Assembly: GCA_004298155.1 (NCBI GenBank)
Contig: SCRD01000018.1
Coordinates: forward strand, 62,001 to 126,000
From: Acidobacteriota bacterium
GTDB taxonomy: Bacteria; Acidobacteriota; Terriglobia; UBA7540
Reading direction: 5' to 3'
DNA length: 64,000 nucleotides
Under the pieces are notes generated by a model. The model was not told the DNA's origin, searched no databases, and saw only the letters and a list, made by a program, of their open reading frames with translations. Made by a program: the position numbers and the translations under genes. Of this stretch, positions 40,073 to 45,665 are shown in pieces; the first letter of the stretch is position 1, and every line of letters starts with the position of its first letter.

Positions 40073-40528
40073 TTACCTTTTCGCAGCCGTCGGACCCTTT
40101 TGCGCGGTGCGATTGCTCCTGGGCGCCTGGTTCAGTTCACGCTCAAGCTGGCGAATGGCCTTCTGCGCGTCCGTGGCCTCATCGGCCTGCTGCTTTGACG
40201 GAAGCGTCTCAAGGTATTTCTGGTAAGCGGCGAGAGCTTCGCGCTTTCTGCCCATTTTTTCATAGGCTTTCCCCATCCCAAGATAGGCCGCGGCGTAGTA
40301 GGGATCGTCCCTGGCAGCTTCCTCGTAACGGCTGAGCGCCCCGGGATATTTCTTCCTGCGGAAATAGAAATCGCCAATCTCAACCGATTGACTGGCCGAG
40401 GGCGGAACGTAATGGTATGTGGCTTCCAGTTCGCTCGTATCCGGCGTTTTGTGCTGGCCCGGCAATGCGATCGGCAGTCCGGTGAGCCCAATCAGGCAAA
40501 GCAGCAACACAGCGAAACCATGACGCAT
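40073..40528 (-). CDS. Exported TPR-repeat protein
   Basis: 151-aa protein with a signal sequence (FAVLLLCLIGLTGLPIALPG) and two tetratricopeptide repeats (SVEIGDFYFRRKKYPGALSRYEEAARDDP and AAYLGMGKAYEKMGRKREALAAYQKYLETLP), then a charged tail. It is probably a periplasmic scaffold. It lies 41 bases after the stop of the candidate immunity gene, all on the minus strand, so it may share its transcript, although a role in the toxin locus is not implied by its sequence. Confidence 0.82.
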   Translation of the reverse strand: MRHGFAVLLLCLIGLTGLPIALPGQHKTPDTSELEATYHYVPPSASQSVEIGDFYFRRKKYPGALSRYEEAARDDPYYAAAYLGMGKAYEKMGRKREALAAYQKYLETLPSKQQADEATDAQKAIRQLERELNQAPRSNRTAQKGPTAAKR

Positions 40529-40569
40529 ACCTAAATTGTCTACCGCCGCCTGCAGCGAGTCAACCTTCG

Positions 40570-40938
40570 CTATTTCCTTTCGGGATTGAGCCGTTTGGAG
40601 ATTACAAAGACTTCCACCCCAGACATCGAGCACTCCTCATTCGAAGCATCATGAATAGCAATGGCATTGATTCGACCGCCAGTGTCCTTTGTAAACGTGA
40701 CCAGGTAGACCTGACGCCAGAGGTCTTTGCCGATCCTCTCCGACGCTAAACGCACTGTCTTGGTCTTCGAGAAATCAATGCTCTTGTTGTCTGCTAAACC
40801 AGCGTTTTTCAGTTGGACAAAGGCCATGTTAGTTGGCCAGCCACTGCTGCAATCCGGCCCGTTTGCCTTCGCAGCTTGCGAAAATGCGTTTTCGGGGATG
40901 CTCACAGTGAGGAGGGTAAGAAGCAAAACGGTTTTCAT
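40570..40938 (-). CDS. Exported protein, candidate immunity protein to the RHS toxin
   Basis: 122-aa protein with strong ribosome site AGGAGG 7-8 bases before the ATG and a signal peptide (MKTVLLLTLLTVSIPENAFSQ). The mature part has two cysteines (PDCSSGWPTN, EECSMSGVEV), likely joined by a disulfide, and a mixed alpha/beta pattern (TKTVRLASERIGKDLWRQVYLVTF). It starts 47 bases after the stop of an RHS protein with a peptidoglycan-targeting C-terminus. An exported antidote fits a toxin that acts in the periplasm, as with Tlde1/Tldi1 pairs. The immunity role is inference from position, export and size. Confidence 0.7.
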   Translation of the reverse strand: MKTVLLLTLLTVSIPENAFSQAAKANGPDCSSGWPTNMAFVQLKNAGLADNKSIDFSKTKTVRLASERIGKDLWRQVYLVTFTKDTGGRINAIAIHDASNEECSMSGVEVFVISKRLNPERK

Positions 40939-40985
40939 TTAGAGCCTCCTTGGCAGGGGATGCGCCATGATGCGCCGTCGTTTCA

Positions 40986-42923
40986 CTATGGCACTACAAT
41001 CAGGTTGCTGATTCCACTCCCGGTTACTGTCTCTCGCGAAGGCCTCGAAAGCACAATACAACCTTCAGAGGAACTGAACCGTGAATTACTTCCATTGTCG
41101 CCGTGAATCCAAAAACTGTCCCGCCCCTCCATATTGGTGCCCGGCACCGGATCCAGAGGCATGGATACCGGTCCGATTTCGTTCGTGGGTAGGCCAATAA
41201 CGTACCTCCCACGCGGGAGTGGTCCCGCATTCGCCCTATCGATTCTTTCACCTATGGATTGACTATCAGGATTGTTGAGACCCATACCATGTCCGGCATA
41301 ACCCGCGCCGGCGTGGACGATCGTAACTGCACCAACCTTCAGGTCCATACAGCCTCTCTTCTGGCTGTATTGCCAATTGGGTGGACCCGGGGCTGGCAGT
41401 CCTAGCGCACCGCCGATAAAGCCGGGTCCGACCCTCCAAATACCTAGAATATCCGCCGCGTGTGTGTCGAGGTATGTACCGCAGCCCTCACTGTTACAGA
41501 CGGTTTTGAAAAGCAGGTCGAAAGGATCATAGCCCAATATGGTCCAGTAGTCGTATCCCCCAACCGACGACCAGTGGTTGCAAACGGGGTCCATTAGGCA
41601 GTGGAGCTTAAATTCCGCCTTGAGCTCTCCCGCCGGCGGGGCAAGCCCCAGCGGGTCGGTGAAAGTCGTGGGATTATTCAGCACGTAGGCATACCGGTTG
41701 AGCGATTGCGGGTTGCTCACATCGCCACCCAGCAGATCAGGCGTCATCCACCGTCCGAGCGCGGAGCTGACTTCGCGCGTGGCCGAAGGAACCAACGGAT
41801 CATTAACCTGCCAATCGAGCCCCATCACCACCTCAGACTGCCGGATGCCCGTCTCCTGAAACACTCCGCCCCAGGGATAATGCGTCACGTCCCACTGCAC
41901 CCCTCCGGCAGGGTCCGTTTCCATGGTGGTGGAACCGACAGCGTCCGAGTGGTCGATGAAGGCGCTCGCCCCGCCCATGTTCAGCCGCTGCCCCGCCACC
42001 TGTGACCAGTAAACGTCCCAGCCCGTCCAGTGGGCGCTGGGATGCTGGTCGAATGTCCCCGTCCGCTGGCCGAAAATGTCTATCGGATAGGTCAGCGTCA
42101 TGGGGTCGATGCCCTGGTAATCCTGCACCCGCTGCCCCAGCGCATTATACATCGGGTACTGCCACTGACCCGAGGAGTAGGAATGCTTCACCCGCCCTTC
42201 AGCATCGTACTCGTAGGTGGACCATATATCGTTCAACTGATTTCCGGCAGGATCGTAACTGACGCCGGTACTTCCGATGCTCGTCATTCGGTTCGTGCCT
42301 GAATTATAACTCACAGCGGGGCACAATCCACCCCCTGAACCCGGAGCACACGTTCCATTGCCGTACTGGTCGTAGCTGTATATCAGATCGTAGGCTGGAC
42401 TCCCCGAAGCTACAGCGTGCGTGAGCCGGTTCACGGCATCGTAACAGTAAGTGAATGCGTGGCTGTAACCCGCATTCACGTTGTCCGTGTAGGTGCTGCC
42501 CATAATGTTGCCGTTGTCGCCCGTTGCCGCCGCGCAGGGCGGGCTGCTCCCCGTGTAGCTGTAAGTCAGGGAATAATCCGCTGACAAATTGCTCGAATTA
42601 CCCAGTTCCATCAGCACCGGCTGGAACCGGTTATTATACTGCCGCGTCTCCTGCGACTGCGCGCAGCCCCCGCCTCCGCACATCGTGCTGATCGCTCCCC
42701 AGGGTGTATAGGTGATACTCGATACGGCCATATTCGCCCCGTAGGTCAGGCTCGTTGGTCGCTGGTTCACATCGATCCCCTGGGTCACCGTGAATCCCTC
42801 CGGGTTTGTGTAGCTCGTCACATCTCCCGCCAGATCGTAACTGTAGGCCATATTCCAGATGCTGGCGCTGCCGCAATTGTAAGGCGCGCACTGCCAGAGA
42901 TTTGCCACCCGCCCCATCTGATC
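40986..42923 (-). CDS. RHS-repeat C-terminal fragment with Tlde1/DUF2778-like L,D-transpeptidase toxin tip
   Basis: About 645 codons of RHS protein read from the inner edge of an inserted element; the frame is open on into that element (to 43067) but the RHS-like residues start near GRVANLWQ. YD-type repeats (YSYDLAGDVTSYTNPEGF, TYCYDAVNRLTHAV, YEYDAEGRVKHSYSSGQW) lead to the RHS core end (RYAYVLNNPTTFTDPLGL) at about 41650. The last ~215 residues are the variable tip: AGPLPRGRYVIG, then FWIHGDNGSN...SSEGCIVLSR, with His (codon at 41103) and Cys (41058) 15 residues apart, as in DUF2778/Tlde1-type enzymes that act on peptidoglycan tetrapeptides. The N-terminal half of a normal RHS protein is absent, so this may be a displaced tip needing recombination to be expressed. 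Confidence 0.78.
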   Translation of the reverse strand, partial: DQMGRVANLWQCAPYNCGSASIWNMAYSYDLAGDVTSYTNPEGFTVTQGIDVNQRPTSLTYGANMAVSSITYTPWGAISTMCGGGGCAQSQETRQYNNRFQPVLMELGNSSNLSADYSLTYSYTGSSPPCAAATGDNGNIMGSTYTDNVNAGYSHAFTYCYDAVNRLTHAVASGSPAYDLIYSYDQYGNGTCAPGSGGGLCPAVSYNSGTNRMTSIGSTGVSYDPAGNQLNDIWSTYEYDAEGRVKHSYSSGQWQYPMYNALGQRVQDYQGIDPMTLTYPIDIFGQRTGTFDQHPSAHWTGWDVYWSQVAGQRLNMGGASAFIDHSDAVGSTTMETDPAGGVQWDVTHYPWGGVFQETGIRQSEVVMGLDWQVNDPLVPSATREVSSALGRWMTPDLLGGDVSNPQSLNRYAYVLNNPTTFTDPLGLAPPAGELKAEFKLHCLMDPVCNHWSSVGGYDYWTILGYDPFDLLFKTVCNSEGCGTYLDTHAADILGIWRVGPGFIGGALGLPAPGPPNWQYSQKRGCMDLKVGAVTIVHAGAGYAGHGMGLNNPDSQSIGERIDRANAGPLPRGRYVIGLPTNEIGPVSMPLDPVPGTNMEGRDSFWIHGDNGSNSRFSSSEGCIVLSRPSRETVTGSGISNLIVVP

Positions 42924-43226
42924 GCGGGTGGCGCAGATACGTGCTTTGTCGTGTCTGCGGTCTCGCGAAGCGGGAGGCATTTGCTTCGCTTCGTGGCATC
43001 CGATCCATGGCGATGATCGATGCGTCCTCGAAAAAATAAAATCTCCAGTTCGACCACGGCCATTCACTCGGCGAAGCTAAAACCGGCGTGCGGCGACAGA
43101 TGCTGGTGGTCAAATAGTGAAGATGGCTCAGGCCGTAGTATCGAGGCAGTTTTGACACCGCACCATTTTAACCCCACTCAGCTTCCCCGATCGCGGACAT
43201 TAAAAGTCAATATCTGCGCCACCCGC
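42924..43226 (-). mobile_element. 303-bp element with perfect 16-bp terminal inverted repeats
   Basis: GCGGGTGGCGCAGATA at 42924-42939 and its exact reverse complement at 43211-43226 bound a 303-bp segment lying between two RHS pieces. Inside, on the minus strand, are the first ~27 residues of a REP-associated tyrosine transposase (PRYYGLSHLHYLTTSICRR) joined directly to its late region (SEWPWSNWRFYFFED), so the catalytic middle is deleted. This looks like a non-autonomous, MITE-like derivative of a RAYT gene. A further 9-bp dyad (GCCACCCGC at 42904-42912 with the left end) forms a hairpin. No target duplication is evident. Confidence 0.6.
43006..43158 (-). pseudogene. Internally deleted REP-associated transposase (RAYT) remnant
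   Basis: Reads from MSKLPRYYGLSHLHYL at 43158. The N-terminal motif (RYYG-x-x-HLH-x-x-T) and the late motif (SPSEWPWSNWRFYFFED) are those of RAYT proteins, but the HxH metal site region and the catalytic Tyr helix between them are missing. About 120 residues have been lost in frame. It cannot be active. Confidence 0.6.
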
Positions 43227-43638
43227 CCGGTCCGTCGCCCTGATAATCCTGCACCCGCTGTCCCAGCGCATTATACATCGGGTACTGCCACTGCCCCGTC
43301 GAGTAGGAATGCTTCACCTGTCCCTCAGCGTCATACTCGTAGTTGGAGCCGCCGTCCCATAGCAGATCGCCCGCCGCATCGTAATTGAAGCCCGTGTTGG
43401 TCATTTGATTTGTAGTTGTGTTGTACGTGTATTGCGGATAGAAGCCCTGCGTGCCGCCGTTCATGACGCACGTCCCATTACCGTACTGGTCGTAGCTGTA
43501 GGTCAGATTATACGCCAGGTTGCCTGTTGCCCCCGCGGTCAAAAGCCGGTTCACCCCATCATAGGTGAAGGTCGCAGCGTGGCTGTAACCCGTGTCCGCG
43601 TTGTCCTGGTACCACGACCCAGCCATCGAGCTTTTCAA
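43227..43638 (-). pseudogene. RHS repeat fragment, truncated at both ends
   Basis: About 137 codons homologous to the inner part of the neighbouring RHS gene: SHAATFTYDGVNRLLTAG, NLTYSYDQYGNGTCV, YEYDAEGQVKHSYSTGQWQYPMYNALGQRVQDYQG. The same peptides occur, slightly changed, at about 42110-42510, so this is a diverged duplicate. After YQG the reading runs into the inverted-repeat element and stops (43207). There is no start signal and no RHS N-terminus upstream. It is a relic of RHS tip exchange or tandem duplication. Confidence 0.7.
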
Positions 43639-43823: not shown

Positions 43824-45665
43824 ATGAACGAACATCTCAAGGAAAGAGCGGAAGACCTTCCGGCGCGGCCGGGCGTGTACCTTTTTAAGGACTCTGCCGG
43901 GCGGCCCATTTACGTGGGCAAGGCCAAGTCATTGCGCCACCGCGTGCGGTCTTACTTTCAAGAGTCCCGCCCCAGCGATGAAAAGCGCGACCGCCTGCTC
44001 GACGTGGCCGCCGAGCTGGAAACCATTCTGGTGGACAATGAGAAGGAAGCCCTCGCGCTTGAGAACAACCTGATTAAGCAGTTCAAGCCACGCTACAACG
44101 TCCTGCTCCGTGATGACAAGACTTACCCTTACATCAAGCTCACTTTGCACGAGCGATTTCCGCGCGTTTACGTTACACGCCGCCTGCGAAAAGACGGGTC
44201 GCGCTACTACGGTCCGTATTTCCCGGGAGGGCTTGCCTACCGTATTGTGGACCTGATCCACCGCCGGTTCTTTGTTCCGTCATGCAAAGTGGACCTGACG
44301 CGTTACCATCCGCGTCCCTGCCTTCAGTACTACATCAAGCGCTGCCTGGGCCCGTGCGTTGAAGGGCTGACCACGCCGGAGAGGTACGCCGAAGCCGTGC
44401 GCGATGTTCGCATGTTCCTCGAAGGCCGCGAAAGCGAGCTGGCGAGGGACCTTCACAATCGCATGGAGCGAGCTTCAGAAGACCAACGCTACGAAGAGGC
44501 CGGCCGCTACCGGGATCAGTTGCTTACCGTTGAAGAGCTGCGCGAGCGGCAGAAAATGGCGGCGTCTTCAGGCGAGGATTTCGACATCTTCGGGTTCCAT
44601 CGAGAAGGTGCACAAATGGCCGTGGACCTGTTCCACTTCCGTAACGGCCGGACCGTTGACCGCCGGGAATTCTTCTGGGAAGATCTTGCTGAACCTGACC
44701 TCAGCGATGTCTTCGCGGCGCTGGTGAAACAGGTCTACCTTGATCAACAGTATGTGCCTGGAGAAATCTTCGCGCCGGTTGGTTTTGAAGATCAGGGACT
44801 GCTTGAAGAAATACTGTCGGAAAAACGCGGCAGGCCCGTGCACATTTATACTCCGGAAGCCGGCAGGCGGCGAGGGTTGCTGGAACTGGTCGCCAGGAAT
44901 GCGCGCCACTCTTTTGAACGCAGGTTCCGGGTGCTCAAACCTCGAACGGAGGAGATGCTCGGGGAACTGGCCGACGCCCTCGACCTTGATAAGCCTCCCC
45001 GACGGATTGAAGCGTTTGACGTTTCGCATATCCAGGGTACCGACATTGTGGCTTCCATGGTGGCTTGCGAAGATGGCGAGATGAAAAAGTCGGACTACCG
45101 AAAGTTCATCATCAAGACGGTCCCGCAGAATGATGATTTTGCCAGCATGCGTGAAGTCGTGGGCCGGCGGTACCGCCGCCTTCAGCAGGAAAAAAAGAGG
45201 TTTCCCGATCTGGTTTTGATTGACGGTGGTCTGGGGCAGCTCCATGCCGCAGCAGACGCGCTTGCTGAGCTTGAGATTATCAACCAGCCGCTGGCCAGTA
45301 TCGCTAAGAGGGAGGAGATCTTATACGTCTATGGCCGCGAAGATGAGCCAATAGTTCTTGATCATCACTCACCCGTACTACACCTGATCCAACGCATTAG
45401 GGACGAGGCCCACCGATTTGCAGTTACCTTCCACAGGAAGCGCCGAACGCGCCGGGAGTTAGCCTCAGAGCTGCTGGAAGTCCCCGGCGTGGGTGATCGG
45501 ACGGCCAGAAAGCTCCTTGAGCACTTTGGCAGCATGGCCAAACTCCAATCCGCCAGCGAAGCCGAACTGTCCCAAATTGTGACACAAAATCAAGCAAGGA
45601 GGATTATGGAGTATTTTTCAAAGGCAGGCGTCAAATATCGAATAGGCAGTCCGGACGGTATATAA
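43824..45665 (+). CDS. uvrC: Excinuclease ABC subunit UvrC
   Basis: 613-aa dual-incision nuclease of nucleotide excision repair. N-terminal GIY-YIG domain (PGVYLFKDSAGRPIYVGKAKSLRHRVRSYF, residues ~15-45) for the 3' cut; Cys cluster (PSCKVDLTRYHPRPCLQYYIKRCLGPC) that may hold an Fe-S site; UVR motif (SEDQRYEEAGRYRDQLL); RNase H-like domain with RIEAFDVSHIQGTD and DLVLIDGGLGQL for the 5' cut; C-terminal helix-hairpin-helix (LLEVPGVGDRTARKLLEHFG). All key residues are present and length is normal. It works with UvrA, two copies of which are in this window, and UvrB, not seen here. Confidence 0.97.
   Translation: MNEHLKERAEDLPARPGVYLFKDSAGRPIYVGKAKSLRHRVRSYFQESRPSDEKRDRLLDVAAELETILVDNEKEALALENNLIKQFKPRYNVLLRDDKTYPYIKLTLHERFPRVYVTRRLRKDGSRYYGPYFPGGLAYRIVDLIHRRFFVPSCKVDLTRYHPRPCLQYYIKRCLGPCVEGLTTPERYAEAVRDVRMFLEGRESELARDLHNRMERASEDQRYEEAGRYRDQLLTVEELRERQKMAASSGEDFDIFGFHREGAQMAVDLFHFRNGRTVDRREFFWEDLAEPDLSDVFAALVKQVYLDQQYVPGEIFAPVGFEDQGLLEEILSEKRGRPVHIYTPEAGRRRGLLELVARNARHSFERRFRVLKPRTEEMLGELADALDLDKPPRRIEAFDVSHIQGTDIVASMVACEDGEMKKSDYRKFIIKTVPQNDDFASMREVVGRRYRRLQQEKKRFPDLVLIDGGLGQLHAAADALAELEIINQPLASIAKREEILYVYGREDEPIVLDHHSPVLHLIQRIRDEAHRFAVTFHRKRRTRRELASELLEVPGVGDRTARKLLEHFGSMAKLQSASEAELSQIVTQNQARRIMEYFSKAGVKYRIGSPDGI

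What the first reader, a model, noticed from the sequence alone, without database searches (positions are those of the whole stretch)
40570..42923. RHS tip with Tlde1/DUF2778-like peptidoglycan toxin and a likely new immunity partner
The C-terminal ~215 residues after the RHS core end (DPLGL) carry PRGRYVIG and an HG...SSEGC motif with catalytic-type His and Cys 15 residues apart, the pattern of DUF2778/Tlde1 L,D-transpeptidase effectors that act on tetrapeptide stems. The next gene, 47 bases on, encodes a 122-aa exported protein with a likely disulfide, the right size and location for a periplasmic antidote. An RHS-borne L,D-transpeptidase-type toxin with exported immunity in this phylum would be worth describing. 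The family match is recalled, not searched.
Basis: partly seen in the sequence, partly recalled or inferred. Interest (0 to 1): 0.65.

Follow-up and report, generated by a model that had tools for sequence, protein, structure and literature searches.

The report
Orphan cell-wall toxin tip with antidote
This bacterial DNA carries a detached piece of an RHS weapon whose end looks like an enzyme that damages rival cell walls, followed by a small exported protein from a family that often accompanies the same kind of toxin in other bacteria and is most likely its antidote.

Summary
Observation confirmed, interpretation largely supported. The ORF at 40986-43067(-) ends an RHS core at DPLGL. Its tip passes the Pfam cut-off for Tlde1_dom (35.6 against 30.1 bits), keeps the active-site His and Cys, and its predicted structure matches Tlde1a best (Z 11.2 over 109 residues, other L,D-transpeptidases tied).

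The 122-aa protein has homologues on plasmids, in viral contigs and in three phyla. Tlde1 lies directly upstream in 26 of 40 loci outside the window; 10 lack it, 4 are cut off. Toxin and partner divergence correlate (r 0.71, 18 pairs). One locus (L152) is a second RHS-borne Tlde1 with this partner. No family member has a credible Pfam, NCBIfam or PHROG match (31 scanned).

Two corrections. The RHS gene lacks its N-terminus: it is a detached ("orphan") tip, inserted between a TPR gene and uvrC, ending at a transposase-linked repeat. And the kind is known: RHS toxins with L,D-peptidase tips and linked immunity were predicted in 2012 (PMC3482391). What looks new is this uncatalogued partner family, shared by RHS tips and stand-alone Tlde1 genes. 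Toxicity and neutralisation remain untested.

The parts
40570..40938 (-). 122-aa exported-looking protein, proposed immunity protein of the Tlde1 tip; AAGGAGG ribosome-binding sequence upstream; conserved C30 and C103
   Evidence: ORF; homologues; adjacency to Tlde1; alignment; model; G+C 49.9% against 56.4% for the window
40989..41375 (-). Tlde1 / L,D-transpeptidase-type toxin domain (Pfam match about 41031-41306), catalytic-type His and SxGC Cys
   Evidence: PF10908 35.6 bits, cut-off 30.1; alignments; model; top solved match Tlde1a 7uma Z 11.2
41376..41642 (-). linker after DPLGL; its first ~40 residues resemble those behind a related RHS core with a different tip in a same-genus genome (L129)
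   Evidence: sequence comparison by eye
41643..42923 (-). RHS core fragment, 5'-truncated, ending in DPLGL
   Evidence: TIGR03696 39.9 bits, cut-off 32.5; cores 83-90% identical in same-genus genome G001
42924..42970 (-). 47-bp repeat at the 5' border of the RHS fragment; further copies near RHS remnants elsewhere
42971..43158 (-). remnant of a Y1-type (RAYT-like, name recalled) transposase gene with an internal deletion
   Evidence: by eye against the intact copy L128:7365-7922, Y1_Tnp 50 bits; the window ORF itself has no Pfam match
43207..43638 (-). second RHS core fragment, covering only part of the core
   Evidence: 64% identical to residues 186-322 of the 474-residue query; its own Pfam and NCBIfam scores are below cut-off
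40073..40530 (-). TPR-repeat protein gene flanking the insert (probable start near 40528)
   Evidence: next to uvrC in 9 relatives
43824..45665 (+). uvrC, the other flank of the insert

Best explanation
The locus is a displaced ('orphan') RHS toxin-immunity cassette. Its tip is an L,D-transpeptidase-fold enzyme of the Tlde1 type. If exported into the periplasm of a rival, it would use its Cys (with the HG... His) to trim or exchange the terminal D-Ala of peptidoglycan tetrapeptide stems. The 122-aa protein is exported, probably disulfide-stabilised, and most likely binds and blocks the tip in the periplasm. As the cassette stands the toxin has no N-terminus or export signal. It would be silent until recombination joins it to a full-length RHS gene, while the immunity gene, with its own good ribosome-binding site, could protect the cell now. 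Shown here: homology, predicted fold, intact reading frames, neighbourhood conservation, truncation of the carrier. Inferred: enzyme activity, toxicity, neutralisation, export, recombination.
For: Tlde1_dom above cut-off. Tip model (pLDDT 84.2) matches Tlde1a 7uma best, Z 11.2, rmsd 2.3 over 109 residues, with other L,D-transpeptidases tied. The active-site Cys is present in 15 of 15 aligned toxins and the His in 13 of 15, the window having both. Partner homologues lie directly behind Tlde1 frames in 26 of 40 loci, including stand-alone pairs overlapping by 4 nt on four plasmids and an RHS-borne tip in a deltaproteobacterial MAG (L152). Toxin and partner distances correlate, Mantel r 0.71, 0 of 9999 permutations as high, 18 pairs. 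Same-genus RHS cores carry other tips. TPR and uvrC lie next to each other without such an insert in 9 relatives. The RHS N-terminal part of same-genus G002 is not found in this genome at E<=1e-10, and the genome's other RHS-core frames are 544 aa or shorter. Orphan RHS modules deployed after recombination were reported in Salmonella (PMC3967940, passages).
Against: Ten of 40 homologous loci lack Tlde1 although at least 600 nt upstream were held, and the nearest relatives of this partner (Granulicella, Acidisarcina, B. ambifaria) are among them. Three of the 26 positives are short broken toxin frames, one of them only at E 0.0058 (L170). The published motif has (S/T)HGC where the window has SEGC. 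No intact RHS gene was found in this genome that could deliver the tip. Foldseek alone found no match at E<=0.001 for the tip; the Tlde1a match comes from the second-look aligner. The Mantel test does not separate co-adaptation from joint descent.
Confidence: 0.78

Rival explanations
1. The cassette is a decaying remnant with no present function: the RHS part is a pseudogene cut by transposase-related elements, and the tip and partner have simply not yet been lost.
For: The RHS part lacks its N-terminus; a second RHS fragment and a transposase remnant lie beside it; other RHS remnants of this core family in the genome that I read are short.
Against: The tip keeps an open frame and the conserved active-site residues. 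The partner gene is intact, with conserved cysteines and a strong ribosome-binding sequence.
Confidence: 0.3
2. Only the antidote matters: the 122-aa gene is kept as a solitary defence against Tlde1 delivered by other bacteria, and the toxin tip beside it is baggage.
For: Its closest relatives are solitary copies; related loci in Snodgrassella hold tandem arrays of such genes.
Against: In the window a full toxin domain with active-site residues sits 47 nt upstream.
Confidence: 0.3
3. The 122-aa protein is an adaptor, chaperone or second effector of Tlde1 rather than its antidote.
For: Neighbourhood alone cannot tell these roles apart.
Against: It has an export signal-like N-terminus (by eye), occurs without Tlde1 in 10 of 40 loci and in tandem arrays, as is usual for immunity genes; the carriers range from RHS to stand-alone genes, which would hardly share one adaptor.
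Confidence: 0.06

Closest known systems
RHS polymorphic toxins with Tox-LD-peptidase tips (Zhang et al. 2012, PMC3482391; passages and table rows read)
   Same: RHS carrier, L,D-peptidase-type tip at the extreme C-terminus, linked immunity gene
   Different: The partners listed there are Imm16 and Imm57; no Pfam model matches this partner at E<=0.01 in any of 31 members. The phyla listed there for this toxin do not include Acidobacteria. The window's carrier is truncated.
Tlde1a/Tldi1a of Salmonella (PMC9638812, passages read)
   Same: Tlde1 domain, catalytic-type His and Cys, matching predicted fold, exported partner
   Different: Tlde1a is a stand-alone T6SS effector. Motif here is SEGC, not (S/T)HGC. 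In S. Typhimurium the immunity gene lies upstream (PMC10434147, passage), here downstream. Tldi1a sequence was not compared.
Stand-alone 'tlde1 domain-containing protein' pairs of Burkholderia, Paraburkholderia and Cronobacter plasmids and of a Dyella locus
   Same: Homologous toxin and homologous downstream partner
   Different: No RHS carrier; genes overlap by 4 nt in the four plasmids; the Dyella locus has OmpA-type and ClpB-type AAA genes beside it, which suggests a T6SS cluster
Orphan RHS modules (Koskiniemi et al. 2014, PMC3967940, passages; bee-gut survey PMC8125069, passages)
   Same: Displaced RHS 3' end with linked immunity gene, lacking start and export signals
   Different: Different toxin from the Salmonella case; a main RHS gene was not found in this genome

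Membership tests
RHS polymorphic toxin | RHS core ending in DPxGL | tested here: met
   TIGR03696 39.9 bits, cut-off 32.5; DPLGL read
RHS polymorphic toxin | different tips behind closely related cores | tested here: met
   two G001 cores 87 and 90% identical carry other tips
RHS polymorphic toxin | linked immunity gene directly downstream | tested here: met
   122-aa gene 47 nt downstream; family adjacency 26 of 40 loci; neutralisation itself not testable
RHS polymorphic toxin | N-terminal secretion or export part on the same protein | tested here: not met
   RHS ORF truncated at the 5' end; RHS N-terminal part of G002 not found in G000 at E<=1e-10
Tlde1 (PF10908) | profile score above the curated cut-off | tested here: met
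   35.6 against 30.1 bits
Tlde1 (PF10908) | L,D-transpeptidase fold like that of Tlde1a | tested here: met
   7uma Z 11.2, rmsd 2.3, 109 residues; LdtMt1 5e51 at Z 11.0 and YkuD at 10.7 are tied, so the fold alone does not single out Tlde1
Tlde1 (PF10908) | published motif with (S/T)HGC | tested here: not met
   SEGC in the window; only 1 of 15 aligned toxins has His there (L167), so this feature does not define the wider family
Tlde1 (PF10908) | L,D-carboxypeptidase and exchange activity on tetrapeptides | not testable with these tools
   needs enzyme assays
Tlde1 as T6SS effector | delivery by a type VI secretion system | not tested
   no search for T6SS genes in the window's genome was made
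Imm16 / Imm57 | match to a known immunity model | tested here: inconclusive
   no Pfam family at E<=0.01 in any of 31 members; whether both models are in this Pfam copy was not checked
Tldi1 | sequence homology to Tldi1a | not tested
   Tldi1a sequence not fetched

The most novel reading that the evidence does not exclude
The 122-aa proteins form an undescribed, portable immunity family that follows Tlde1-type L,D-transpeptidase toxins across carriers (RHS tips, stand-alone secreted effectors, plasmids, phages) and phyla. It has a cystatin-like arrangement, one helix on a four-stranded sheet, and blocks the active-site cysteine, a bacterial parallel to cystatins that inhibit cysteine proteases. 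The fold likeness is weak (best Z 7.4, to an uncharacterised B. subtilis protein; affimers up to 6.4; chicken cystatin 5.3) and the blocking mode is conjecture.
Probability: 0.2. Interest if true: 0.6.

Novelty: new member of a known kind. Interest (0 to 1): 0.42.

Why it matters
It links three things usually treated apart: orphan RHS tips, stand-alone Tlde1 effectors, and solitary or arrayed immunity genes, through one partner family that the three profile libraries searched do not name. If the 122-aa protein neutralises Tlde1-type enzymes, annotators gain a handle on 'hypothetical protein' genes behind Tlde1, including those on plasmids, in viral contigs and in bee-gut Snodgrassella arrays. 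The same antidote could be tested against both RHS-borne and stand-alone versions of the toxin.

Tried and rejected
Single-protein searches of 101 relatives and of 396 phylum genomes, this genome counted in each, found no homologue of the 122-aa protein outside this genome at E<=0.001. One hit at E 0.002 (L021) was rejected because it overlaps a long FG-GAP-type ORF (name recalled) and has stops in its frame. A profile search (A3) of the 396 genomes also found only the window. So the family is rare in that draw, and the plasmid, genome-contig and viral-contig searches revealed it. The two alignment scans used one short motif around C103 as seed, so members without that motif were missed and the counts are not a census.

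phmmer against PDB sequences gave nothing useful for tip or partner. Foldseek alone gave no match at E<=0.001 for either model. The partner's second-look matches stay under Z 8 and I do not claim a fold family.

I considered that the proteins behind other RHS-linked Tlde1 tips in the phylum (L022, L023, L024, L029) might be the same family as the window's. They look different by eye and align with each other only weakly (21-24% identity to the first). No profile comparison between the two groups was run.

I considered calling the neighbouring repeat a mobiliser of RHS tips. The first own-genome query included the transposase remnant, so some loci (L067, L068) were brought in by that part and cannot count as evidence of enrichment.

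Phages (INPHARED) gave no homologue of the partner at E<=0.1.

Full report
WHAT IS THERE. On the minus strand, a 693-codon ORF (40986-43067) holds an RHS core that ends in DPLGL, followed by 218 residues; 47 nt on is a 122-aa ORF (40570-40938). The core passes TIGR03696 (39.9 against 32.5 bits). The tip passes Pfam Tlde1_dom (PF10908, 35.6 against 30.1) and also matches YkuD below its cut-off (20.2 against 23.4). In an alignment of 15 toxins the Cys of S-x-G-C is present in 15 and the His of HGD in 13, the window having both. The published motif has (S/T)HGC (PMC9638812, passages read). The window has SEGC, and only 1 of the 15 has His at that place, so this difference says little.

THE TIP. 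A model from 15 sequences (mean pLDDT 84.2) has Tlde1a of Salmonella (7uma) as its best solved match, Z 11.2, rmsd 2.3 over 109 residues. LdtMt1 (5e51) and YkuD are within 1 Z and so are tied. The Foldseek step alone had no match at E<=0.001; its first row was an L,D-transpeptidase at E 0.35. I conclude that the tip is an L,D-transpeptidase-fold enzyme, and by profile one of the Tlde1 type. By what is known of Tlde1a it would trim tetrapeptide stems and exchange their D-Ala. That activity is inferred.

THE PARTNER. The 122-aa protein has no credible family match (31 family members against Pfam, NCBIfam and PHROGs, where the only listed match was one member at E 0.0078 to a GlmU model). tblastn against plasmids found 5 records. 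In four of them (B. aenigmatica, B. glumae, Paraburkholderia sp. D15, C. condimenti) it lies directly behind a gene annotated as a tlde1 or DUF2778 protein, with a 4-nt overlap; in the fifth, Acidisarcina polymorpha pACPOL4, no Tlde1 was found. A scan of genome contigs with the seven-sequence alignment gave 27 loci and one of viral contigs 8.

HOW OFTEN WITH TLDE1. I searched these 40 loci (5 plasmid, 27 genome, 8 viral) with a toxin profile built from ten sequences, four of them the plasmid toxins themselves. Directly upstream, 26 have a Tlde1 frame; 10 have none although at least 600 nt are held; 4 have too little upstream to say. Among the 26, L159 itself has less than 600 nt upstream; three (L170, L171, L173) hold only short broken toxin frames, L170 at E 0.0058; L159 and L176 hold partial frames; L143 and L160 are near copies and lack the usual N-terminal part in frame; L148 is a near copy of L178, and L179-L181 are near copies of L178. 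Setting broken frames and near copies aside leaves 18 distinct pairs outside the window. Of the ten without Tlde1, L175 is itself only a fragment of the partner.

DO THEY TRAVEL TOGETHER. With the window and 17 of those pairs (L159 left out because its toxin is cut), toxin and partner distances correlate with r 0.71, reached by 0 of 9999 permutations. This shows that the two travel together, not that they bind.

A SECOND RHS CASE. In L152 (deltaproteobacterial MAG) an RHS core fragment ending in DPLGL carries Tlde1 (51 bits) and is followed by a partner 53% identical to the window's. Upstream in the same locus is another RHS tip, so this too looks like a row of tips. L153 has a stand-alone frame that still begins with an RHS-end-like stretch (by eye). 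Among the toxins compared, the window's is nearest to L153, L154 and L152 (47-52%), and its partner is 52-55% identical to theirs. In a tree of 54 different partners from 35 sources, window included (fragments such as L175 and L182 dropped), the window groups with solitary copies of Granulicella and Acidisarcina (99/81), and other solitary copies lie close by. Solitary and tandem copies (nine in L169, Snodgrassella) fit an antidote family.

THE PARTNER'S SHAPE. The model (mean pLDDT 87.6; residues 31-120 above 90 in every block of ten) is one helix and four strands. Two cysteines (C30, C103) occur in 31 of 31 aligned members and could form a disulfide; C103 lies in the search motif, which biases its constancy. 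Matches to cystatin-like and NTF2-like structures stay at Z 7.4 or below, which the tool warns may mean only a common arrangement.

THE CARRIER IS A FRAGMENT. RHS homology in the window stops beside a 47-bp repeat (42924-42970), beyond which lies a transposase remnant (to 43158), then a second RHS piece (43207-43638), then uvrC. An intact relative of that transposase beside an RHS tip in G001 matches Y1_Tnp. The TPR gene and uvrC lie next to each other on one contig (70-377 nt between matches) in 9 of the 22 genomes with a TPR match (31 searched); in 12 the two were not found together, and in the window they are 3.2 kb apart. In same-genus G001 the contig that holds uvrC ends, just upstream, inside an RHS core piece that starts part-way and has one stop (83% identical), so the insertion is shared or the site is used repeatedly. 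G001 and G002 carry related cores with other tips. G002 has an RHS N-terminal part with a signal-peptide-like start (by eye); it was not found in G000 or G001 at E<=1e-10. The six RHS-core matches of the window's genome lie in frames of at most 696 aa, the longest being the window's own. I therefore call the cassette an orphan tip in the sense of PMC3967940 and PMC8125069 (passages read). The lower G+C of partner (49.9%) and tip (53.7%) against core (59.8%) fits a cassette of other origin.

OTHER TLDE1 IN THE PHYLUM. PF10908 was found at E<=0.001 in 6 of 101 relatives and 6 of 396 phylum genomes, this genome counted in both; 5 of each 6 are over the family's cut-off. Of the ten places outside the window, L023, L024, L025 and L031 also match RHS_repeat, L022 shows an RHS core by eye, L029 follows an RHS core end as its own frame, L027 and L030 match eCIS_core, and L026 and L028 show neither by eye; L026 and L031 are under the Tlde1 cut-off. 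L022, L023, L024 and L029 are followed by exported-looking proteins that resemble each other weakly and not the window's partner (by eye).

NOVELTY. Zhang et al. 2012 list Tox-LD-peptidase with RHS repeats and the immunities Imm16 and Imm57; Acidobacteria are not in their phylum list for that toxin (PMC3482391, table rows). In the listings of my text searches and the passages read I saw no paper that names a Tlde1 tip on an RHS protein in that phylum or this partner family. Those searches cover only the open-licence library; most listed papers I saw as titles and abstract starts, and the 2020 paper that founded Tlde1 (recalled) is not held. The finding is thus a new member of a known kind with an uncatalogued partner family.

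Noticed in passing
window 42924-42970; copies in L062-L068, L127-L129, L134: A 47-bp repeat beside Y1-type transposase remnants borders the RHS fragment; copies lie near several other RHS remnants of this genus (19 sources searched). Enrichment not tested because the first query included the remnant.
   Followed up: partly
L191:5636-7267 (same contig as the window, outside it): Another RHS-core protein whose tip ends with an H...HGC pattern like an L,D-transpeptidase, followed by an ORF with a hydrophobic stretch; Pfam sees only RHS repeats.
   Followed up: partly
L022, L023, L024, L029: Tlde1 tips in the phylum followed by exported-looking proteins that resemble each other (21-24% to the first) but not the window's partner: possibly a second immunity family.
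   Followed up: partly
L027:1312-2598(-), L030:967-2646(-): Proteins combining eCIS_core with a Tlde1 domain (L030's Tlde1 under cut-off on its own); in L027 the next gene resembles a contractile injection system tube protein (below cut-off). Tlde1 may be cargo of extracellular injection systems.
   Followed up: partly
L166, L169, L172, L173 (Snodgrassella): Tandem arrays of partner-family genes, nine copies in L169, some behind one Tlde1 gene.
   Followed up: partly
L152:1-582: RHS tip upstream of the RHS-Tlde1 tip, with a match just under cut-off to Peptidase_M91 (24.6 against 25).
   Followed up: no
L162:1920-2408: A second, strong Tlde1 gene (122 bits) about 2 kb upstream of the pair in Phaseolibacter flectens; its partner was not looked for.
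   Followed up: no
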